A stretch of DNA of 64,000 bases from assembly GCF_010119975.1 (NCBI RefSeq), contig NZ_CP048222.1, forward strand, positions 3,676,501 to 3,740,500, written 5' to 3'. Made by a program: the position numbers and the translations under genes. Below, piece by piece: positions 53,884 through 64,000 of the stretch. The notes beneath the pieces were generated by a model. The model worked only from the letters and a program-made list of their open reading frames with translations. It was not told the DNA's origin and did no database searches. This DNA comes from Rhodocytophaga rosea. Lineage in GTDB: Bacteria > Bacteroidota > Bacteroidia > Cytophagales > 172606-1. The first letter of the stretch is position 1, and every line of letters begins with the position of its first letter.

Positions 53884-54909
53884 TTATTTGTCAAGTCTGC
53901 CGATTACTCTATCTACTATTTCTTTATCGGTTTTTTCTAACCGAAGTTTAATTGTCATATCTTTTGTAATTTTTATATTTGGAATCATTCCGAAATAAAT
54001 ATCATCTTCTTTAAAGTCAATTCCAATTATAGAAACCATTTGCCCTACAGGGACTCCTTCCATAGTGTTCTGGCTATCACTTTGAAGAATGGAGTTATAA
54101 TCTTTAAACACGCAAAAGACATAAGGATTTTGTATTTTGTTAGCTGCTATATGAACTGTAGTGAATTCCTGGAAATCAATAAAACGGTCACAATTTATCC
54201 ACTGTAATTTACTTGCACTAAACACTTTGTCTATTACTCTATCTCTGCTGTTTGTAGATGTTACATCCATCCAGGTAATAAATGAAAATGGGAGTGTATC
54301 ATTCGAATGTGTAAAAGTGACAATAGTATCTACATGTGTATAACCTCTGTTCCATTTGAGTGAATCAATTATAAAATCTTCATATGCATAATCACAATTT
54401 CCACAAGGAGAGCCTTTTAATATATGATTTATGAAAATATGGTAATTGGAAGTAGTCGTATCTAATACCCAATTAATTTTTTTGTTACTGAATGCACCAT
54501 AAAATACCTTATATTCCTCAGAGTTTATATTACCAGCAAAAGCAATTTCGATAGGTTTATTCAAGGCTAATTCAGTTTGATCATGTAAAGACTGAATGTA
54601 AACCATTCCTTTCGATTCTAAAATCCTATTATTTGATGTTGTACTTAACCCGGCTTTTATCATATCGGATTTTGTATACACCTCCTTTACAACAAATCTT
54701 ATAGAATCACTTTCAGACACAGTAAAAGAATGTTTAGGAATTTTAATTATTGTGCCGTCCTGACAAGTTATCGTTGTATCCTTCTCATTATTAATCTTAA
54801 ACTCTTGCTTATTAGTATCAAAAATTGATGATAAGTCTGCTCTCTCTTTATCTTTTGTATCGCAACCGACAATAAGTAGACTTATAAATATGATTGTGTA
54901 TTTTAACAT
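53884..54909 (-). CDS. Lipoprotein with a ZU5-like beta domain, unknown function
   Basis: 341 residues from the ATG at 54909, which opens a lipoprotein signal (MLKYTIIFISLLIVGCDTK, Cys16); the longer frame to 54939 buries it. CQDGTIIKIPKHSF, then VVKEVYTKSDMIKAGLSTTSNN and ILESKGMVYIQS follow the ZU5-like pattern often seen in Bacteroidota surface lipoproteins. The rest (about 150-340) is unrecognised. The gene is AT-rich and lies 7 bases past the ATPase gene's stop on the same strand, so it is the last gene of that run. Confidence 0.68.
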   Translation of the reverse strand: MLKYTIIFISLLIVGCDTKDKERADLSSIFDTNKQEFKINNEKDTTITCQDGTIIKIPKHSFTVSESDSIRFVVKEVYTKSDMIKAGLSTTSNNRILESKGMVYIQSLHDQTELALNKPIEIAFAGNINSEEYKVFYGAFSNKKINWVLDTTTSNYHIFINHILKGSPCGNCDYAYEDFIIDSLKWNRGYTHVDTIVTFTHSNDTLPFSFITWMDVTSTNSRDRVIDKVFSASKLQWINCDRFIDFQEFTTVHIAANKIQNPYVFCVFKDYNSILQSDSQNTMEGVPVGQMVSIIGIDFKEDDIYFGMIPNIKITKDMTIKLRLEKTDKEIVDRVIGRLDK

Positions 54910-54946
54910 TGTTATATAGCTGATTGAATCGTTATACACCAGACAT

Positions 54947-57900
54947 TTAATCTTCCTTCCTTGCCAGAATATTCTTAATGCCTTCCAGTTTGTCAGAAAT
55001 CACTTCCATGCTTACTACGACTTGGCCAACCTGGTTATCAGCACCTAGACCTTTGAGTTTTTTGTTTTTGAGGAAAGTTGTTTTGATATCTTCCCAGCGT
55101 TTTTGATCTGCAGCGGTGAGTTGTCCGGTGAGTTCTTTGAATTTGAGCAGGTTGGCTTCGGCACCAGTGGCTAACGTCTGGGCTTCGTTTTCATAATGCG
55201 AATTAATTACGGTACGGAGTTCCTGTTCATTCATCATAGCTACTACTTTATCAGCAATTTTATTCATGTTCCGGTAAGAACCTTGTAATTTGAAAGGCGG
55301 CTCTGTCCGGAACTCATCTGACTGGGCGGCAGAATAAATATATTCTTTGTTCACTTTCAGAATTATATCCCGGATAGCCAATAGTTTCTTTAGAATGGAT
55401 ACATACTCATTGATCTCTTCTGCGGCATGACTGGCTTCAAAAGTTAAACCATCTCTGATACCAGTTTGGGCAATTTTAATAAAGGTGAGTACATCTTTAT
55501 GACTTTTCATAGCCAGTTTTTGCAGCACCGGATTAGCTGTGAGGCAGTTTTCGAGATAACTGAGTTTAAAAGCTTCGTCGGAATCACCAATAATGTCGCC
55601 CAGGTTATAAATGTCTGCCCGGTTGGCCAGCATATCCGGAATCTGGAATTTGCTGCCGCTTTCAGTATAAGGGTTTCCAGCCATCACTACGCACACTTTT
55701 TTGCCCCGCAAATCATAAGTATGACTTTTCCCTTTATACACGCCTTCAATTTTCCGCTGCGCATCACAAAGAGAAATGAATTTCTGTAAAAACTCCGGAT
55801 TACAGTGCTGAATATCATCCAAATAGAGCATTACATTATCGCCCATTTCCAACGACAGATTGAGCTTTTCAATTTCTTCTCTGGCCGCTGCATTCGGTGC
55901 TTCAGCCGGATCGAGGGAAGTTACCTTATGCCCGATCGCTGGTCCATTGATTTTCATAAAGATAATTCCCAGGCGGTTGGCAATATATTCCATTAAAGTA
56001 GTTTTACCATATCCGGGAGGAGAGATCAGTAGCAGCATGCCCATCCGGTCGGTACGTTTATTGGCTCCAACGGTACCAATTTGTTTGGCTAGGTTGGCTC
56101 CGATTAATGGCAGGTAAACCTGGTCAATCAGTTTATTACGGACGAATGAAGTAAGTACATTTGACTTAAATTCATCTAGGCGTAGTTCCTCTTTGAAAGC
56201 GGCCACCATACTTTTTTTCAGCGCGGTATATTCCTGGAAACGGGGTACAATGTGTGCATCAAAGGTTTTCAGTTTTACCATGAATGCATTATAGTTGAGC
56301 AGGTATTTTCCTCCTTCTATTACGGCATGTGCTCCCTGTAAACCAGTAAGTTCTGTTTTTAAGGAAATACGGATGATCTTTTTCTGTTGCAATCCATCAG
56401 TAAACAAGAGTACAGCTGCTTCGTCCAGGTATTCCCGTTTTTCATCCAAATGGGTATGGTCAATAAAGGCATTGAGCCACTTTTTGATCAGTTTGAATTT
56501 CGCTACCTGGTTTTTCTCCAGAGATGCAACTGATTCTTCATAGGGCTGCGTATATTTTTTGTCTTTCAAATGTGCTAAAAAGCCTTCATATAGACCGGCC
56601 GCTTCGGCATCTACAATAAAATCATCGCTCCGGGTGAGTTCGTAAAACAAGTATTCGCCAGCCTCTGAGGCCAATGCCGTATCAAACAATCTGCTGTCAT
56701 TCGTAAAATTTGCTACTTCCTTCTGCACTTCCTCTACGAGCCCTTCGAACTGTTTGGTATCGGGGAAAACCTGTAAAATTACGCCTACTCCTTTTAAACG
56801 GCGGTGCAGAATTTCTTTAAACTCAGTAGGCGCGAATGCCTGCCAGTATAAGGAAGCACAAGCCCTGGCTTTAGATGGGTATTTGAGCAGGTCAATGTTG
56901 CTGGTAAGTTCTAGTAAAGCTTTCAGAATCAATTCTGCATCCTGATCGTGCACGCCTTTAATATATCCTTCATTGTACCTGGGAGCCATAAATTTCTGCA
57001 CATAGTCCAGCAACTCAGCATTAGTTAATAGCTGAAGTTCTTTGGTTGTGAGGTAGTGAAAACTTTGTCCCTGGCCATTTATATAGGTTCCTGTTTTTTC
57101 CTTTATAATAGTAGATTTCAGTATTTGGTAGGCTAAGTATTCTGCCCTGTATACCTCTGTATTTTCAGAAATTAAGGCTTGTTCCCACACATCTCTGGTC
57201 GAGAGAAAAGCAGTATCAGTAATTTTTTCAAAGAAATTAGTGCCTGTGAGGTGGTAAAACATATCACCTTGCTGATTCACAATACTCAAATCCAGAGGCT
57301 GTGTATTGGTAGAAAAGCGAAAATCGCCGAATTTAATCACCGATGATCCATCTACAAACAATTCCTGTTTATCTTTCAGTTGGCGCAGGGTTTCTTCCTG
57401 CACTGTTTTCAGGCGGCTTTGAATATCATCCGACTTTACAGTATCACCCATATCAGCCAGTTGCCGGATAATATCGCGGACTTTATCTACCATCAGGTCG
57501 GAAGCAAAATAGCCGTTGATCTCATTTACCATGGTAAACGTAGCGGCCCGGCTTTGTATGCCCTTCAAAATCCGTTCTGCCGATTGCATCAGAGCAATAG
57601 AACGTTTGTTTCTGGCTTCGGTTATGCTGAGTTTTTTGCTTTCGAAGGCATTGTATACTTCTTCCCGCTTCTGGGTGATCTTGTCAATAAAATCTTCAAA
57701 CTCGGAAAAACGACCTTCGAGTTCTTCCAGCTGCACCATCAGCTTGGTTACATATTCATCGCATTTTTCTGGAGTCTGGCTGATATCTAAATAATTGGCT
57801 ACCCCCTGATCTACGAGTTTGAGCTGGGAAGTGAACTCAGCCTTACCTTCTACTCCCAGTAATTCCTTCCGTTTTACCTTCAGCGCCGCCCTTATCTGGT

Positions 57901-59902
57901 TGAACTGGGCATAAATGGCAGAAATATTATCAATAATACGTGTAGTTTGAGTAGCATCTTCAATCTTGAGATTGCTCACTACATCAATCAGCATTTCCAG
58001 TTCGGTGGAAATAGCGGCAATATCTTCCTCTACTTTATTGGCTTCTATAACCTTTGCAATGCCGGCAATACTTTGATGGAGGGAACTAACTTTTGTCTGG
58101 TAAGGAGCCAGTGCATCGTCACGAAGCAAAAATACGACCGCATCGTTGGAGAGTTTAGCTGTGAGTGTTTCTATTTCTTTCTCCTTTTTTTCAATCAGAG
58201 GCAGATCGGTGTACTGGAGGTTTTTCAGGGAAATGGTTTCACCCCGCAATGACCGGAAAGAAGCCAGAAACTGCACAAAATGATTGATAGTATCAGACTG
58301 GCTCTTATTCAGCTCGGAAACCGTTTTGTTTACCTTTTGTACCACCCGGTCAATTTCTTCACTGGTATTCTTGCGGATACGGGTTACTTTCTCAAATTCT
58401 TCGATGGCCGAAGAAGCCGATTGCTTGATCTCCAGTAAAGGTTCCGCCAGTTGATAAGTTTCCGTGCGGTTGAGCCAGTGATAGGAATCTATAATGTCGG
58501 TGGTCATTTTCACCAGATCCATGTACAGATTCACATAGGTATCGTCCCGGTTAATGAGTGTAAGCAGTTCATTAGTTTCGGCCATGGCCCGTACGATATC
58601 TTTATTACCAATTTTATACAGATACGAGTCGCTGGTTTTTAAAATCGGATAATTAGGATCTACATAGGGGGTTTGCCAGATTTGTACGACATGGTGCTTT
58701 TTCTGCTCATTTTCAGCTTTAAAATAGCATAGTTCGCCGTTTTCAAAAATAGAATAGCCATGACATATAATCGGAATGGCTACTTTCTGCTCAATCAGAT
58801 TATAGGAAAGCAGTACATAGGTGCCGGTGTTCCGATTGTAAAAGACATATAAAAAATCTTCGCCATTGGGAGATGCAATCTTTTTTTCAAACAGCATATC
58901 CGACATCTGGTTGTCGAAAAGTTTGTACTCACCAGTTTGCAGATAATAACCGTTGGCAAAAATAATCCCATGATCGTCGGGCAATAGTACGCAGGAATCC
59001 TGGAGGGAATCTAGCCGCTGGGCATGACGTATTTTTTCGTTATAAACTATATAGCGGTATTTATGCTCCTGGAAAGGCTTTATCTTGAGTACCACAATAT
59101 TCCCGATGATGGTATAATGAATTTCGGCATCGTCCAGGGTTTGGTCTTTGTTTTCTACTTCCTCTGAGTAAATGCCCTGTCCAGTCGCCGTATTATTTTC
59201 TATTTTAATGGTGAGATCGCCACCAATAGTTTCTACAAAAACCCGGTCGGCAATAGAAATATGCGGAAATTTACCTTCCCGCCTGGCTTCCCGATTCGTA
59301 CGCTTCCACTTAAACTCATGCTGATCCGGATAGGTGAATTCATGGTCGCTGCGGTTATCTACATAAATCAATTTATCCTCCTGAATCGCCCATTTAAAAG
59401 TTTTGATATCACTGGGACTTTTTCCTACCCGGAACACCATGAATAATTTTAGGCCAATCACCGCAAATTTGGCAAATTGTGTTCCCCGGTAGTATTTGTA
59501 AAGGTTCTTAAAATCTTCCAGAAATCTGGGGTCATTCAACACATCTAAGGAAAGGTGATGAAATGTATGATTTTCATAGCGGTATACACTCAGTACATCA
59601 GCAAGGGTAGTTTCCGTTTTCAGCCCCATGTGTACATTATAGCCAAACAAAAACAGCGAATCGATGGCTACCATATCCACTGGAATGCAGTTGTGTTCAG
59701 TAGTAATCCGCTCAGTCGCCAGCAGCTTGGTTTCGATAGAACCAAAAACTTCCCGCCTTTCAGTATTTAATTTTTCCAGTCGGTTGCGCAGTTCATTACC
59801 TTGTTTGCGCAGCCGGTTGCGGATGATTTCATAGGTTCCTTCCTGCAGGCTTACTTCTTTTTCTTTGGATATATCTTTTACCGGAGGTGTTTCTACAGAC
59901 AT
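54947..59902 (-). CDS. Giant DUF3686-type AAA ATPase ('DNA repair ATPase')
   Basis: 1651 residues. The layout seen is: a short coiled start (20-55), a beta-rich region (about 60-480, FLFGYNVHMGLKTETTLADVL...), a long coiled-coil (about 480-860, IEEFEKVTRIRKNTSEEIDRVVQK), a helical region (860-1270) and one AAA module. Walker A is PPGYGKTT near residue 1300, Walker B is MLYLDDIQHC near 1345, sensor 1 lies in VVMAGNPYTESG near 1395, and DMLANRADIYNLGDI follows. It matches DUF3686 (PF12458), often named a DNA-repair ATPase; no repair motif is visible. Its neighbours are a flotillin and a YqiJ-like protein, which suggests a membrane-linked remodelling job. It is followed at 7 bases by a lipoprotein gene. 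Confidence 0.9.
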   Translation of the reverse strand: MSVETPPVKDISKEKEVSLQEGTYEIIRNRLRKQGNELRNRLEKLNTERREVFGSIETKLLATERITTEHNCIPVDMVAIDSLFLFGYNVHMGLKTETTLADVLSVYRYENHTFHHLSLDVLNDPRFLEDFKNLYKYYRGTQFAKFAVIGLKLFMVFRVGKSPSDIKTFKWAIQEDKLIYVDNRSDHEFTYPDQHEFKWKRTNREARREGKFPHISIADRVFVETIGGDLTIKIENNTATGQGIYSEEVENKDQTLDDAEIHYTIIGNIVVLKIKPFQEHKYRYIVYNEKIRHAQRLDSLQDSCVLLPDDHGIIFANGYYLQTGEYKLFDNQMSDMLFEKKIASPNGEDFLYVFYNRNTGTYVLLSYNLIEQKVAIPIICHGYSIFENGELCYFKAENEQKKHHVVQIWQTPYVDPNYPILKTSDSYLYKIGNKDIVRAMAETNELLTLINRDDTYVNLYMDLVKMTTDIIDSYHWLNRTETYQLAEPLLEIKQSASSAIEEFEKVTRIRKNTSEEIDRVVQKVNKTVSELNKSQSDTINHFVQFLASFRSLRGETISLKNLQYTDLPLIEKKEKEIETLTAKLSNDAVVFLLRDDALAPYQTKVSSLHQSIAGIAKVIEANKVEEDIAAISTELEMLIDVVSNLKIEDATQTTRIIDNISAIYAQFNQIRAALKVKRKELLGVEGKAEFTSQLKLVDQGVANYLDISQTPEKCDEYVTKLMVQLEELEGRFSEFEDFIDKITQKREEVYNAFESKKLSITEARNKRSIALMQSAERILKGIQSRAATFTMVNEINGYFASDLMVDKVRDIIRQLADMGDTVKSDDIQSRLKTVQEETLRQLKDKQELFVDGSSVIKFGDFRFSTNTQPLDLSIVNQQGDMFYHLTGTNFFEKITDTAFLSTRDVWEQALISENTEVYRAEYLAYQILKSTIIKEKTGTYINGQGQSFHYLTTKELQLLTNAELLDYVQKFMAPRYNEGYIKGVHDQDAELILKALLELTSNIDLLKYPSKARACASLYWQAFAPTEFKEILHRRLKGVGVILQVFPDTKQFEGLVEEVQKEVANFTNDSRLFDTALASEAGEYLFYELTRSDDFIVDAEAAGLYEGFLAHLKDKKYTQPYEESVASLEKNQVAKFKLIKKWLNAFIDHTHLDEKREYLDEAAVLLFTDGLQQKKIIRISLKTELTGLQGAHAVIEGGKYLLNYNAFMVKLKTFDAHIVPRFQEYTALKKSMVAAFKEELRLDEFKSNVLTSFVRNKLIDQVYLPLIGANLAKQIGTVGANKRTDRMGMLLLISPPGYGKTTLMEYIANRLGIIFMKINGPAIGHKVTSLDPAEAPNAAAREEIEKLNLSLEMGDNVMLYLDDIQHCNPEFLQKFISLCDAQRKIEGVYKGKSHTYDLRGKKVCVVMAGNPYTESGSKFQIPDMLANRADIYNLGDIIGDSDEAFKLSYLENCLTANPVLQKLAMKSHKDVLTFIKIAQTGIRDGLTFEASHAAEEINEYVSILKKLLAIRDIILKVNKEYIYSAAQSDEFRTEPPFKLQGSYRNMNKIADKVVAMMNEQELRTVINSHYENEAQTLATGAEANLLKFKELTGQLTAADQKRWEDIKTTFLKNKKLKGLGADNQVGQVVVSMEVISDKLEGIKNILARKED

Positions 59903-60100
59903 GGGAAATGGGAATTAGGAGATAAAAATTCTCTTGTGGGTAATAGAGATAAAATTTTTATTAAAGATTTCTCAGGAAATGATGATTAATTTATCATGGG
60001 TTATAGCATTCATATTTAATAGTACATATGAATCAGTTGCACAGAAAATGAAACTCACAAATATCAGAATTCTAATTATTTCTTTTATAACGTATCAAAA

Positions 60101-60167
60101 AAGCCCACCTAGCTGTGCCATTGCGCCAAGATCCTGCGGTGATGCAGGCAGGTTGTAGTTTGGGCTT
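60101..60167 (-). terminator. Long hairpin past the small gene, GC-rich core
   Basis: AAGCCCA (60101-60107) pairs with TGGGCTT (60161-60167). Inside, CCTGC and GCAGG form a second stem. On the minus strand the outer stem is followed by TTTTTTG, as for a terminator, about 15 bases past the stop of the 56-residue gene. The core is GC-rich compared with the surroundings. Confidence 0.6.
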
Positions 60168-60182
60168 GGTGTAAAGTATACT

Positions 60183-60353
60183 CTATTCAACATCTAAATC
60201 TTTGGCTTTAACTACAACAACCTGTCCGTTTTGTGAGAAAACAAGCTCGCCGTCTTCTTTTTGTTTTTTGCGGATAAGCCGTTCTACAGCCAAGTCAATT
60301 CCTTTTAAAATTTTGCTTCTTAGGTCAGTTATATTTAATTTATCTTTATTCAT
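60183..60353 (-). CDS. 56-residue partner protein of the zeta-like kinase
   Basis: A short gene read by eye. The product begins MNKDKLNITDLRSKILKGID, continues LAVERLIRKKQKEDGELVFSQ and ends VVVVKAKDLDVE: a helical first half and a beta hairpin in the second. Its ATG overlaps the end of the zeta-like gene by 8 bases (60346-60353), so translation is coupled. I recognise no family; position and size suggest an antitoxin or regulatory subunit, but toxin-first order is unusual for zeta systems, whose antitoxin normally precedes. Confidence 0.7.
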   Translation of the reverse strand: MNKDKLNITDLRSKILKGIDLAVERLIRKKQKEDGELVFSQNGQVVVVKAKDLDVE

Positions 60354-60921
60354 TACTCAAAGTCTTTAATTTATTCCAAATTTGTTCATTTTGGATGTTT
60401 ATCTCTTGGTCTTCTTGTCCCTCGGCCACTACTATATATGGATTTTGTGAATTATCAATAACTATCCAATAGTCGCAAATTGGGATGAATAGTTTAAAAA
60501 GATTATATATTCCTTTCTTATATCTTCTACGGATAACCTCTTCAGGAATATTATGCCCGCCTTCAGTCACTCTTCTTTTTACCCTAGCAATCGCTAATTC
60601 AGGAGAGTTTAACCAGAAGTATACTAAAGTAATGTTATATCCTTTTCCCTTGGCTACCTTAATTGTCTGCACATAGCTTCTGGTGGCTAATGTTGTTTCT
60701 ATGGCAAAGTCTTCTTGTTTTTTAAGTAACTCGTCAATTCTTTGTAACATTATTCTTCCTGCTTCAACAGCAACTTTTTCAGGCTGAAATGGAGAAAGTC
60801 CACGTGCGATTTCATCTGCATTAACAAATTCACGACAATCAAGCATTTCAGGAAGAACGGTAAAAGAAGCAGTTGTTTTTCCTGCACCATTACAGCCTGA
60901 TATGATGTATAAGTTTGGCAT
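60346..60921 (-). CDS. Zeta-toxin-like P-loop kinase (AAA_33 type)
   Basis: 191 residues. Walker A is GCNGAGKTT at residues 9-17. FVNADEIARGLSPFQPE gives the substrate-site Asp found in zeta toxins, AIETTLATRSY the Glu-Thr-Thr strand, and KRRVTEGGHNIPEEVIRRRY the lid with Arg residues. Zeta toxins phosphorylate UDP-N-acetylglucosamine; small stand-alone relatives of this length occur widely in Bacteroidota and cyanobacteria, with untested activity. It precedes and overlaps a 56-residue gene. The pair lies between the flotillin and the giant ATPase genes. Confidence 0.85.
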   Translation of the reverse strand: MPNLYIISGCNGAGKTTASFTVLPEMLDCREFVNADEIARGLSPFQPEKVAVEAGRIMLQRIDELLKKQEDFAIETTLATRSYVQTIKVAKGKGYNITLVYFWLNSPELAIARVKRRVTEGGHNIPEEVIRRRYKKGIYNLFKLFIPICDYWIVIDNSQNPYIVVAEGQEDQEINIQNEQIWNKLKTLSNE

Positions 60922-60999
60922 ATGTGAATCTTCCTACAATGAGCGTTAACCTATACTGAAGAAGACGGCTAAGAGGCTGAAGCAGTGGAGTTATTTCTA

Positions 61000-61292
61000 T
61001 TAATTTAGGAATGGCTCAAACATTATATGAACGATTATAGATGCCACTATCATAAAGGTATAAATAGAAGTCCACCACTTTGTATGTGAAGCTTTGTTAT
61101 ATAAAATAAATGAAATTATGTAGCTACATAACCTATTAAGCAGGAAGCTAGAAGTTGAAACAGAATCTTGCCGAATAAAATCTCAGACTCAAAAACATCC
61201 ATTAATATTTGAGAAATAACAGAAAAAACAAATAAAGCGATAATATATTTATACTTGAATATGATTTCTTTGATAACAGTTGAGTCAATCAT
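61000..61292 (-). pseudogene. Small membrane protein gene with a single-base frameshift
   Basis: From the ATG at 61292 the frame reads MIDSTVIKEIIFKYKYIIAL, ... LLASCLIGYVAT and stops at about residue 58. Moving to another frame near 61118-61130 continues the hydrophobic pattern, YIISFILYNKASHTKWWTSI then YTFMIVASIIVHIMFEPFLN, up to TAA at 61000. The total span of 293 bases is one short of a multiple of three, so one base is missing. The intact product would have about 97 residues and four helices. A real decay, a sequencing error or a frameshift are all possible. Confidence 0.6.
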
Positions 61293-61353
61293 AGGTTAGT
61301 CTTTTCTTATTTTTAATCCCACACAACATACGGATATATGCAACCTGATATGT

Positions 61354-61393
61354 AGTTGCGTACATTCATCCAAATAGACGAACGTACGCAACT
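61354..61393. repeat. 10-bp inverted repeat after the flotillin gene
   Basis: AGTTGCGTAC (61354-61363) pairs exactly with GTACGCAACT (61384-61393), with a 20-base loop. It lies just past the flotillin stop codon on the minus strand but has no T-run, so it may be a processing or partial termination signal. Confidence 0.5.
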
Positions 61394-61407
61394 GTAAACC
61401 TCAATAA

Positions 61408-63591
61408 TTACCAGATACCCAGGCTGTGGGCGGCATCGTCAGAAACGCCCTTCTTTTTGGCAGAGGAAAGCAGATTATTTAGCAAACTTTTGGATTCCTT
61501 ATCATCAGTCAGTTTTGACATTTGCAGGATCAGAGCAGCTACACTCAGGTTTTTTACGTCTTCAGAAGAGATGCCAAACTGGTCTACCAGGCGCTTGAGG
61601 CTTTGTTTAAAATGGGCTTCTTTGTCTTCTTTACCATTGCCATTTCCGAAGAAAGTGTTTTTTACATCCGTCAGGTTATGACTATTGCTTAGCAATCTAT
61701 CCACTGATTTACCGGTACTCACCGAATTGATGATTTTATCGAAGAACATAGTTTCACCACCCACAATATCAATTTTAGCAGATTTCAGGGCTTCGGCTAT
61801 TACTGTAGCCTGAGCATCAGCGATGTTTTTCTGAATGTTAATGGTAGCCAGTTCCACTTCTTTCTCTTTCTGCAATTTGAGCTTGAACTCTTCGTGTTCT
61901 TTGCCTATGCCGTCCATCTTCTTCATCGCATCTGCCTTGCTTTCAATACCTTTGGCTTCAGCTGTGAATTTCTCATGCATAATTTTGGCTTCGGTGAGGC
62001 CTTTCTTCTCTTCCGCCTGTGCTTTTATTTCGATTACATTTGCTTCGGCCAGACCTTTTTCTTTATTCACTTTAGCAGCTACAAGCCCTAATTTTTCATC
62101 GGCATCCGCCTGGGCTTTGGCCATTACTTCGATACTTTTGGCTTCGGCAATGGCTTTGTTTTCAATAATAGTAGCATCGGCTTTTCCTTCTTTTTCTTTG
62201 GCGAGAGCTTTGGCCTGCATTACCTGGGCTTCGGCGATACCTAAGGCAGCTGCTTTTGAAGTTTCCGCATCGGCCAGTATTTTCATAGCTTCTGCTTTTT
62301 TGCCGGCAGTTGCCTGTTCAGCATCAGCCTCAATCATGATACGTTTTGCCTTAAATTCAGCTGACTGGCGGTCGGCTTCAGCAGCTTTAATTTGTTGAAC
62401 CAATGCTTGTTCTGCAAGCATCTCTGCTTTTTTGATAGCCACTGCTTTTTCACGGTCTGCGAGGGCAAATGCCTGGGTATCTTTTATTTTTTCTTCTTCT
62501 GTCACCACTGCTTTCTGTACTACCACTCTTTCCCGGATCACTTCCTGAATGTTCTTGCGCTCTTCTTCTATAGCTTTTTCTTTGGCAATATCAGCAAGCG
62601 AAACAATACGCTGCTTTTCGGTTACTTCCAGCAAACGGTCTTTGTCTACACGTTCTGTTTCTACCGCTTCAATGCGCTCTTTGTTTTTGCGGGCTACAAT
62701 AATCTGGCGATCACGGTTTTCTTCAGCAATTCTGGATTCTTCTTCCGTCTGTATGCGGGCTTTTTCTGATTTTAGGCGTTCCTGTTGTTGAATTACCGCT
62801 GTTTCAGATTCTTCTCTGGCTTTAATAGAAGCAATTTCCCGTTTCTGCTTTTCTTCAGTTTCTGCCAGTTGCCGGTTTAGTTCCAGTATAGCTTCTTTGG
62901 CTTGTACGTTTTGCTGGGTAATGGTTTTTTCTTTTTCACGCTCAATGTGGTTAGAAAGAATTTTCTGTTTAGCCGTTAGTTCAATGATTTTTTTGATACC
63001 TTCTGCATCCAGAATATTGTTTTCATTGAGTTCTTCAATGTGGGTTTGCTCTAAGTAATCAATGGCGCAATCGTCGAGGATATATCCATTCAGATCAGTA
63101 CCGATAATTTGCAGAATTTCGTGCTTAAATAGTTCACGGGAATTATAGAGTTCAATGAATTCAAACTTTTTACCAACGGTTTTTAATGCTTCTGAAAATT
63201 TGGCATCAAATAGATCTTCTAGTGCCTGAGTGTCAGAAGCCCTGCGGCAGCCAATAGACTGGCCCACTTGAATTACGTCATCCTGGGTTTTATTTACTCG
63301 TACAAAGAAAGTTACTTTAATATCTGCCCGTAAGTTATCCTTACAAATAAGGCCTTCCTTTCCCTGCCTAGCAATCATTACCGTTTTTAAGGAAATGTCC
63401 ATGTGCTCCAGGCTATGTAGCACGGGAACAACGATCATTCCTGAAAATGAAACCTGTGTACCTCCGATACCAGTCCTGACTAAGGCCTGGCCTTGTTCGG
63501 CTTTACGGTACCATTTTGAGATCATGGCAATTATACCAATCAGGATAAATGCTATGATTACTAAACCTACAATTGTAATGTTGAAAACCAT
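61408..63591 (-). CDS. Flotillin-family protein (YqiK type)
   Basis: 727 residues. A single N-terminal transmembrane helix (about 4-25, ITIVGLVIIAFILIGIIAMI) is followed by the SPFH/band 7 domain (about 35-210, including EHMDISLKTVMIARQGKEG and LNGYILDDCAIDYLEQTHI). A very long Ala/Glu/Lys-rich coiled-coil spans about 215-610. The flotillin C-terminus carries AKIDIVGGETMFFDKIINSV. It scaffolds membrane microdomains. It lies 133 bases after a YqiJ-like OB-fold gene, as in E. coli yqiJ-yqiK, and upstream of the DUF3686 ATPase. It is longer than classic flotillins (about 500) but fits YqiK-like ones. Confidence 0.93.
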   Translation of the reverse strand: MVFNITIVGLVIIAFILIGIIAMISKWYRKAEQGQALVRTGIGGTQVSFSGMIVVPVLHSLEHMDISLKTVMIARQGKEGLICKDNLRADIKVTFFVRVNKTQDDVIQVGQSIGCRRASDTQALEDLFDAKFSEALKTVGKKFEFIELYNSRELFKHEILQIIGTDLNGYILDDCAIDYLEQTHIEELNENNILDAEGIKKIIELTAKQKILSNHIEREKEKTITQQNVQAKEAILELNRQLAETEEKQKREIASIKAREESETAVIQQQERLKSEKARIQTEEESRIAEENRDRQIIVARKNKERIEAVETERVDKDRLLEVTEKQRIVSLADIAKEKAIEEERKNIQEVIRERVVVQKAVVTEEEKIKDTQAFALADREKAVAIKKAEMLAEQALVQQIKAAEADRQSAEFKAKRIMIEADAEQATAGKKAEAMKILADAETSKAAALGIAEAQVMQAKALAKEKEGKADATIIENKAIAEAKSIEVMAKAQADADEKLGLVAAKVNKEKGLAEANVIEIKAQAEEKKGLTEAKIMHEKFTAEAKGIESKADAMKKMDGIGKEHEEFKLKLQKEKEVELATINIQKNIADAQATVIAEALKSAKIDIVGGETMFFDKIINSVSTGKSVDRLLSNSHNLTDVKNTFFGNGNGKEDKEAHFKQSLKRLVDQFGISSEDVKNLSVAALILQMSKLTDDKESKSLLNNLLSSAKKKGVSDDAAHSLGIW

Positions 63592-63724
63592 AAGTAAACT
63601 GAATTGAAATATGAAAAATTAGAAATAGATGAAAGGATAATGAATGATTAAAGCGTATGAATATATTATAGGATTTGATGCGTTTATTAAGTATGATAAT
63701 TTATGGGTTGAATTAGACTCTCAA

Positions 63725-64000
63725 TTATGCTTCTACTTCCTGCACTACATAGTAATTTTTATCTTTTTTAAACTCCAGCACCAACGCATTCTTGCCTTTT
63801 GCCAGAGATTCACCATCGCTTGTTTTTACATTCAACATTAATGTATTTCCTCTGGACCTAATGACAGCCTGACCCATTTTTTCAGCATTGGCTGGCAATA
63901 GTACAGTACATACCCTGCCTATCACTTCCTCTTGCTCAGGATCTTTATACAGATAACTGAACATTCTTACAAAAGGCATGGTAAGGAATTTAGCAACAAA
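63725..64000 (-). CDS. YqiJ/NfeD-like OB-fold protein, C-terminal part (runs off the window)
   Basis: The frame is open to the window edge, so only the last 91 codons are seen (FVAKFLTMPFVRMF...). EEVIGRVCTVLLPANAEKMG, then AVIRSRGNTLMLNVKTSDGE and GKNALVLEFKKDKNYYVVQEV form an OB-like beta barrel. This resembles the C-terminal domain of E. coli YqiJ, which follows a membrane segment, and NfeD proteins that pair with flotillins. The N-terminal helices would lie to the right. It lies 133 bases upstream of the flotillin gene. Confidence 0.72.
   Translation of the reverse strand, partial: FVAKFLTMPFVRMFSYLYKDPEQEEVIGRVCTVLLPANAEKMGQAVIRSRGNTLMLNVKTSDGESLAKGKNALVLEFKKDKNYYVVQEVEA

What the first reader, a model, noticed from the sequence alone, without database searches (positions are those of the whole stretch)
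54947..64000. Membrane-scaffold plus giant ATPase module: YqiJ-like, flotillin, DUF3686 ATPase
Seen: a YqiJ-like OB-fold protein, a 727-residue flotillin with a very long coiled-coil, and a 1651-residue protein with a beta-rich start, long coiled-coil and one AAA module, all on one strand. Established: NfeD/YqiJ proteins pair with flotillins, and DUF3686 ATPases are labelled 'DNA repair' mostly by annotation habit. Inference: the ATPase is a remodelling engine docked on a flotillin microdomain, possibly for stress or defence. Both big proteins have coiled-coils that could contact each other.
Basis: partly seen in the sequence, partly recalled or inferred. Interest (0 to 1): 0.7.

Follow-up and report, generated by a model that had tools for sequence, protein, structure and literature searches.

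The report
Flotillin scaffold paired with giant ATPase
A bacterium carries a membrane-scaffold protein (flotillin) beside a giant ATP-burning protein labelled 'DNA repair'; in two genome samples this kind of flotillin and the ATPase occur in exactly the same genomes, so a joint membrane machine is likely, although the gene cluster itself had already been described.

Summary
The cluster is not new: Ravi et al. 2024 (PMC11237479) describe a band-7/flotillin, YqiJ/YuaF and coiled-coil/beta-propeller AAA+ operon, with or without PspA and a CesT/Tir chaperone. New here is the strength of the pairing. In 296 Bacteroidota genomes and 199 genomes of the phylum of a planctomycete MAG, DUF3686 occurs in 8 and 30; a C-terminal module of this flotillin subfamily occurs in exactly the same 8 and 30 (adjacent, same strand, in 37 of 38) and in none of the other 457. 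Walker A and B are kept in 103 of 103 ATPases. PspA is commoner in ATPase genomes (24 of 30 against 37 of 169) in a phylum where 0 of 13 neighbourhoods showed it. Best reading: an ATP-driven machine on a flotillin scaffold, perhaps docked on the flotillin's C-terminal cap, for envelope stress. I found no support for phage defence.

The parts
63725..64000 (-). YqiJ/YuaF-type membrane protein with C-terminal OB fold, 227 aa; 5' part lies beyond the window (complete gene L002:10225-10908:-); three hydrophobic segments
61408..63591 (-). Flotillin, 727 aa: one N-terminal hydrophobic segment, SPFH/Band_7 domain, long charged region, C-terminal module
63082..63504 (-). SPFH/Band_7 domain (res 30-170)
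   Evidence: Pfam Band_7 E 1e-10
61411..61971 (-). Flotillin C-terminal module (res 541-727) with HEEF and IDIVGG motifs, found only in ATPase-bearing genomes in both samples; no Pfam family for most members
60346..60921 (-). Zeta-toxin-like kinase, 191 aa, between flotillin and ATPase; relatives in 595 plasmid records; absent from the same-genus locus L020
60183..60353 (-). 56-aa ORF overlapping the end of the kinase gene by 8 nt; possible antitoxin (inference)
   Evidence: no Pfam match
60101..60167 (-). Hairpin followed by a U run, possible terminator of the inserted cassette; fold not significant against shuffles (z -1.15)
54947..59902 (-). Giant AAA+ ATPase, 1651 aa (DUF3686 - helical region with DUF7902 - middle part - AAA+)
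58478..59794 (-). DUF3686 domain (res 37-475); probably the part that Ravi et al. call beta-propeller repeats; fold not confirmed here
   Evidence: PMC11237479
57863..58117 (-). DUF7902 (res 596-680) within the helical region
55658..56035 (-). AAA+ module (res 1290-1415): Walker A PPGYGKT, Walker B DDIQH, sensor-1 candidate GNPYTE; Arg-finger candidate DMLANRAD lies just after

Best explanation
This is the short (PspA-less) form of a known but, as far as I found, uncharacterised module: a YqiJ/YuaF-type OB-fold membrane protein, a dedicated flotillin subfamily and a giant AAA+ ATPase. The flotillin anchors in the membrane by its N-terminus and builds an oligomeric scaffold. Its C-terminal module (in human flotillin the C-terminus forms the narrow end of a cage) receives the ATPase. 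The ATPase uses ATP to remodel or extract clients at that membrane patch, with PspA and a CesT/Tir-type chaperone as partners encoded in the operon or elsewhere. Its likely occasion is envelope stress. Shown: gene order, conservation, genome-level co-occurrence of ATPase and flotillin C-module, intact ATPase motifs, PspA enrichment. Inferred: cage formation, docking site, client type, stress role.
For: Neighbourhood: flotillin at 84 of 87 loci with enough upstream sequence, OB gene 80 of 87, PspA (profile over 100 bits) 35 of 87, CesT/Tir (over 60 bits) 33 of 87. Adjacent flotillins seen in nine phyla. Co-occurrence of ATPase and C-module: same 8 of 296 genomes, same 30 of 199; same contig and strand, at most 1640 bases apart, in 37 of 38 (distances recomputed). 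The three loci without a nearby flotillin (L061, L072, L079) lie in genomes that carry a C-module flotillin elsewhere. The SPFH profile finds 36 further genomes of 296 without ATPase, all scoring lower (at most 243 bits against 354-385), none with the C-module. E. coli YqiK (553 aa, no ATPase beside it) aligns significantly only up to res 442 of the window flotillin. Walker A and B in 103 of 103 ATPases; two broken genes of the 105 loci were left out. ATPase and flotillin distance matrices agree (r 0.86, 79 loci). PspA in 24 of 30 ATPase-bearing against 37 of 169 other genomes (Fisher p 1.6e-9), while 0 of 13 planctomycete neighbourhoods with enough sequence show a PspA profile hit. Own genome has one PspA match (C1:8679001) beside a TY-Chap/YbjN/CesT-type gene. 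Published precedent: HflK/C cages hold AAA+ proteases; the human flotillin C-terminus forms the cage's narrow end (PMC11260169, passages).
Against: No structure or interaction data; structure prediction was off. The C-module may merely mark the flotillin clade that owns the ATPase, so co-occurrence does not prove contact there; its profile was built from ATPase-linked flotillins. The samples hold related genomes (the 8 Bacteroidota come from 5 genera), so the p-values overstate. L053's draft genome has the ATPase and no C-module match. In several gammaproteobacterial and deinococcal flotillins the module is shortened. PspA enrichment is not corrected for kinship, genome size or completeness, and 6 of the 30 ATPase-bearing genomes show no PspA. 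In this genome an inserted kinase cassette may uncouple transcription of flotillin and ATPase.
Confidence: 0.5

Rival explanations
1. The pairing is real but indirect: ATPase and flotillin serve one pathway (for example PspA-based membrane repair) without touching each other.
For: PspA and CesT/Tir sit in 35 and 33 of 87 operons and PspA is enriched in ATPase genomes, so PspA could be the common partner.
Against: PspA is missing from 52 of 87 neighbourhoods and from 6 of 30 ATPase-bearing genomes of the G331 phylum sample, whereas the flotillin C-module is missing from none of the 38 ATPase-bearing genomes of the two samples.
Confidence: 0.25
2. A DNA repair or nucleoid protein, as annotated: the ATPase acts on DNA and the flotillin only tethers it to the membrane.
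For: Pfam and record names; weak RuvB and clamp-loader similarity.
Against: In NCBIfam and PDB the similarity to RuvB and p97 spans about 30-70 residues around the P-loop; no DNA-binding domain found by Pfam or NCBIfam; the recurrent operon partners are flotillin, OB-fold membrane protein, PspA and CesT/Tir.
Confidence: 0.07
3. An anti-phage defence system.
For: Patchy distribution (8 of 296; 30 of 199); 12 records of the plasmid collection carry it, though some of these are of chromosome size (4.1 and 11.9 Mb); a zeta-like kinase lies inside this copy.
Against: No PADLOC match for five window proteins; no relative in the phage records; in a quick tree of 77 rows the 7 phylum groups need 6 changes, the least possible (26 of 74 inner branches weak, plasmid-borne members of three further phyla not included), so little transfer between those phyla; the kinase is absent from the same-genus locus. 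Neighbours were not scanned for defence genes.
Confidence: 0.06
4. Co-occurrence reflects operon inheritance only: an old gene cluster kept together by shared regulation, with independent functions.
For: Genes are adjacent in nearly all cases, so presence and absence are linked by single deletions; the tree is largely phylum-wise.
Against: Gaps of more than 350 nt between flotillin and ATPase, many with other genes in them, are tolerated in 23 of 88 loci without losing the pair; one pair is divergently arranged (L082), and in three genomes both partners are present but not neighbours (L061, L072, L079).
Confidence: 0.12

Closest known systems
CesT/Tir-PspA / band-7-flotillin / AAA+ (coiled coil + beta-propeller) / YqiJ-YuaF operons of Ravi et al. 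2024 (PMC11237479)
   Same: Same components; the paper says abbreviated operons with flotillin, YqiJ/YuaF and in some cases the ATPase are widespread in bacteria and archaea and might use PspA encoded elsewhere (section 19 read).
   Different: The window copy has no PspA dyad beside it and an inserted zeta-like cassette. Sections 18 and 19 do not report the strict co-occurrence, the C-terminal module or the divergent XRE-type regulator; the rest of the paper was seen only as passages, tables and supplements not at all. That its ATPase is DUF3686 is my identification from architecture and neighbours.
SPFH2/NfeD2 operons yqiJ-yqiK (E. coli) and yuaF-yuaG (B. subtilis)
   Same: OB-fold membrane protein with a flotillin.
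   Different: E. coli yqiK has no ATPase beside it; YqiK is 553 aa and its significant alignment stops before the C-terminal module.
HflK/HflC cage with FtsH
   Same: SPFH cage working with AAA+ hexamers (passage in PMC11260169).
   Different: FtsH is a membrane-anchored protease (recalled); here no protease domain and no hydrophobic segment in the ATPase.
ESCRT-III/Vps4
   Same: A PspA-family protein with an AAA+ motor is proposed for remodelling (PMC11237479 section 18).
   Different: This ATPase has DUF3686 and a different domain layout; flotillin, not PspA, is the constant partner.

Membership tests
Flotillin-YqiJ-AAA+ module (Ravi et al. 2024) | Membrane segment + band-7 + coiled coil + flotillin-type protein | tested here: met
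   Hydrophobic segment, Band_7, long charged region; coiled coil by composition only, no clear heptad signal
Flotillin-YqiJ-AAA+ module (Ravi et al. 2024) | YqiJ/YuaF-like 3-TM protein | tested here: met
   hhalign to YqiJ 96%, YuaF OB domain E 0.002, YqiJ_N in 10 of 40 family members scanned but not in the window's own protein, three hydrophobic segments
Flotillin-YqiJ-AAA+ module (Ravi et al. 2024) | AAA+ ATPase with coiled coil | tested here: met
Flotillin-YqiJ-AAA+ module (Ravi et al. 2024) | Beta-propeller repeats at the ATPase N-terminus | tested here: inconclusive
   Crude window-against-window profile comparison: the 15 best pairs were overlap artefacts; no solved relative of that part; prediction off
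Flotillin-YqiJ-AAA+ module (Ravi et al. 2024) | CesT/Tir-PspA dyad in the operon (full form) | tested here: not met
   Not beside this copy; PspA with a TY-Chap/CesT-type neighbour elsewhere in the genome; so the abbreviated form
Active AAA+ ATPase | Walker A, Walker B, sensor-1 Asn, Arg finger, sensor-2 Arg | tested here: met
   PPGYGKT and DDIQH in 103 of 103; GNPYTE in 100, DML(A/S)NR(A/S)D in 99, LQGSYR(N/D)M in 96 of 103 (broken genes L021 and L096 left out, some rows cut by contig ends); roles of the last three inferred from position; activity not measured
DNA repair ATPase | DNA-binding or nuclease domain, repair-gene neighbourhood | tested here: not met
   No such domain by Pfam or NCBIfam; no repair gene among recurrent neighbours by my reading of the 25 largest groups, which were not all scanned
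Anti-phage defence system | Known defence protein family | tested here: not met
   PADLOC: none for five window proteins (OB protein not scanned); an unknown system is not excluded

The most novel reading that the evidence does not exclude
The giant ATPase is a dedicated motor that caps the narrow, cytoplasmic end of a flotillin cage: an ATP-powered gate over a sealed membrane patch, the flotillin-branch counterpart of FtsH with HflK/C and of Vps4 with ESCRT-III, kept in at least nine phyla. The flotillin C-terminal module is its docking site.
Probability: 0.25. Interest if true: 0.8.

Novelty: new member of a known kind. Interest (0 to 1): 0.45.

Why it matters
Bacterial flotillins are studied as raft scaffolds, but what they act with is largely open. 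A strictly co-occurring AAA+ partner, with a conserved flotillin segment as candidate docking site, turns 'flotillin microdomain function' into a direct biochemical test, and questions a 'DNA repair' label that is used for this family in several phyla.

Tried and rejected
Structure prediction of the two ATPase halves: tool switched off, so no fold search. Beta-propeller test by comparing profile windows: the 15 best pairs were 7-column overlaps, inconclusive. Heptad test of the flotillin: no clear signal above shuffles. Sigma-70 promoter scan: 28 sites against 31.6 expected, uninformative. Rfam: nothing over threshold. An apparent giant ATPase fusion in one fetched record turned out to be a run of masked letters read as open frame; rejected. 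Phage defence considered and set aside for lack of support. The 351-aa ORF downstream of the ATPase (53884-54939) was considered as an operon member: only weak, below-cut-off Pfam similarity, and I did not see it in the 25 largest neighbour groups.

Of 12 plasmid records 11 were fetched (H3, a second Proteus record with the same score as H2, was not); all 11 have the flotillin upstream. 18 of 105 loci have less than 4.5 kb upstream and were left out of the 87. The alignments used only part of the loci: A5 35 rows and A6 33 rows of 88 flotillins, A7 40 of 81 OB proteins, the tree 77 rows.

Full report
What is there. On the minus strand, in transcription order: an OB-fold membrane protein (complete in L002:10225-10908, cut by the window end), a flotillin (61408-63591), a zeta-toxin-like kinase (60346-60921) with an overlapping 56-aa ORF (60183-60353), and the giant ATPase (54947-59902). 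The ATPase has DUF3686 (res 37-475), a helical region with DUF7902 (res 596-680) and a heptad signal in 8 of 12 windows between res 486 and 860, a weakly conserved middle part, and an AAA+ module. Walker A (PPGYGKT) and Walker B (DDIQH) are present in 103 of 103 ATPases; two broken genes of the 105 loci were left out. The second Asp of DDIQH stands where AAA+ proteins usually have Glu (recalled). All 41 relatives scanned match AAA_5 (dynein-related), AAA, AAA_22 and RuvB_N. No solved structure resembles the N-terminal half beyond a short match to TEX12, and the AAA part reaches p97 and RuvB only around the P-loop.

The OB protein. The window's own protein has no Pfam match, but a profile of 40 of 81 family members hits the YuaF OB domain (2k14, E 0.002) and aligns with E. 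coli YqiJ at 96% probability; 10 of the 40 match YqiJ_N, 2 NfeD. I take it for the NfeD2/YqiJ-type partner known from SPFH2 operons (PMC2636767, passages).

How often the genes go together. I collected 105 ATPase loci: 13 from Bacteroidota genomes, 11 from plasmid-collection records, 80 named genome contigs and the window's own. Of the 87 with at least 4.5 kb upstream, 84 have the flotillin (83 same strand), 80 the OB gene, 35 PspA and 33 a CesT/Tir-type gene. The phyla with an adjacent flotillin are Bacteroidota, Planctomycetota, Verrucomicrobiota, Kiritimatiellota, Bacillota, Thermodesulfobacteriota (names), and Pseudomonadota, Actinomycetota and Deinococcota. DUF3686 itself is patchy: 8 of 39 relatives, 3 of 8 in the family, 8 of 296 in the phylum, 30 of 199 in the phylum of a planctomycete MAG. 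For scale, the window's genome has seven Band_7 matches in 8.98 Mb, six over the cut-off, so a flotillin next to a given gene by chance would be rare.

The flotillin C-terminal module. The last 187 residues of the window flotillin are conserved across phyla, with HEE(F/Y) in 85 of 88 flotillins and a GG(E/D/S/Q) motif after two aliphatic residues in 88 of 88. No Pfam family matches more than 2 of the 35 members scanned. A profile of this module finds exactly the 8 of 296 and 30 of 199 genomes that have DUF3686, and none of the other 288 and 169. Module and DUF3686 lie on the same contig and strand, 128-1640 bases apart, in 37 of 38; in G331 they are on two contigs (distances). The SPFH part alone finds 44 of 296 genomes, with a clear step between the 8 ATPase genomes (354-385 bits) and the rest (at most 243 bits). 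The three ATPase loci without a nearby flotillin (L061, L072, L079) come from genomes that carry a C-module flotillin elsewhere; of the six genomes checked only the draft genome of L053 had no match. E. coli YqiK stops aligning significantly at res 442 of the window flotillin. Limits: the module profile was built from ATPase-linked flotillins, so the result shows that no close relative of the module was found without the ATPase in these samples; it does not show contact. The sampled genomes are related to each other (the 8 Bacteroidota belong to 5 genera).

Where the module might sit. In human flotillin the C-terminus forms the narrow end of a truncated-cone cage, with cap helices, a beta-strand that builds a barrel, and further helices; the wide end with the SPFH domains sits on the membrane (PMC11260169, passages). 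The module here reads as the same order, helix, short IDIVGG strand, helix (my reading of the sequence, no structure). That makes the narrow end my candidate for docking of the ATPase. HflK/C cages holding AAA+ proteases are a precedent for an SPFH-AAA+ machine (same passages).

Link to PspA. PspA occurs in 35 of 87 neighbourhoods. In the G331 phylum sample it occurs in 24 of 30 ATPase-bearing and 37 of 169 other genomes (23 of 30 and 30 of 169 over the Pfam cut-off; not corrected for kinship, size or completeness). Of 13 planctomycete loci with enough upstream sequence none has a hit to my PspA profile, although in the sampled genome G476 a PspA lies within 3 kb of the flotillin module. The window's genome has one PspA match, several megabases away, beside a TY-Chap/YbjN/CesT-type protein. 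This fits the suggestion of Ravi et al. that abbreviated operons may work with PspA encoded elsewhere.

Regulation and history. In 32 of the 35 loci with PspA a divergent gene of one family, mostly 200-270 aa, lies upstream; the three scanned have an XRE-type helix-turn-helix, and two of them match Peptidase_S24 just above or above the cut-off. The ATPase tree of 77 rows is close to phylum-wise (6 changes for 7 groups, the least possible; Bacteroidota and Planctomycetota each need 2; 26 of 74 inner branches weak; no plasmid-borne rows), and ATPase and flotillin distances agree (r 0.86, 79 loci): probably an old module, often lost.

What is known. Ravi et al. 2024 (PMC11237479; sections 18 and 19 read, passages) describe these operons and propose assembly of membrane-linked complexes in envelope stress. 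No paper in the library holds 'DUF3686', or 'DNA repair ATPase' with flotillin or SPFH. I saw no experiment on the ATPase in the listings. A 2026 study of nine SPFH proteins of Pseudomonas aeruginosa does not use the word ATPase (PMC13086221, term counts and passages). Tables and supplements were not read.

Verdict. A real, conserved and probably functionally coupled module, already described as a gene neighbourhood; a new member of a known kind. What this work adds is the strict pairing, the flotillin C-terminal module and the PspA enrichment. Mechanism remains inference.

Noticed in passing
window 59903-61407; gaps in L018-L129: The flotillin-ATPase gap is a site of small extra genes: over 350 nt in 23 of 88 loci against 6 of 149 for the other junctions of the operon (kinship not corrected). 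By eye the contents include IS200/REP-type transposases, GIY-YIG, DUF559 and GxxExxY genes besides the window's zeta-like kinase (labels other than the kinase are recalled, not scanned).
   Followed up: partly
L025:3843-4598, L031:2592-3377 and 30 other PspA-bearing loci: A divergent gene of one family lies upstream of the CesT/Tir-PspA dyad in 32 of 35 loci with PspA; three scanned have an XRE-type HTH, two of them an S24-like domain.
   Followed up: partly
L021:9138-13971: In a same-family genome the ATPase gene is broken into several open pieces while flotillin and OB genes look whole; decay or an assembly error.
   Followed up: no
window 53884-54939, minus strand: A 351-aa ORF with a lipoprotein-like start begins 7 nt after the ATPase stop; I did not see it among the recurrent neighbours.
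   Followed up: partly
L019:6474-7001; L067:14882-15262: Some ATPases carry a C-terminal extension of about 100-200 aa, with no Pfam match in these two.
   Followed up: no
L035, L066, L097, L117, L122, L124: A phospholipase-D-like gene (label recalled and from Ravi et al., not scanned) lies within the fetched stretch around the ATPase in six loci.
   Followed up: no
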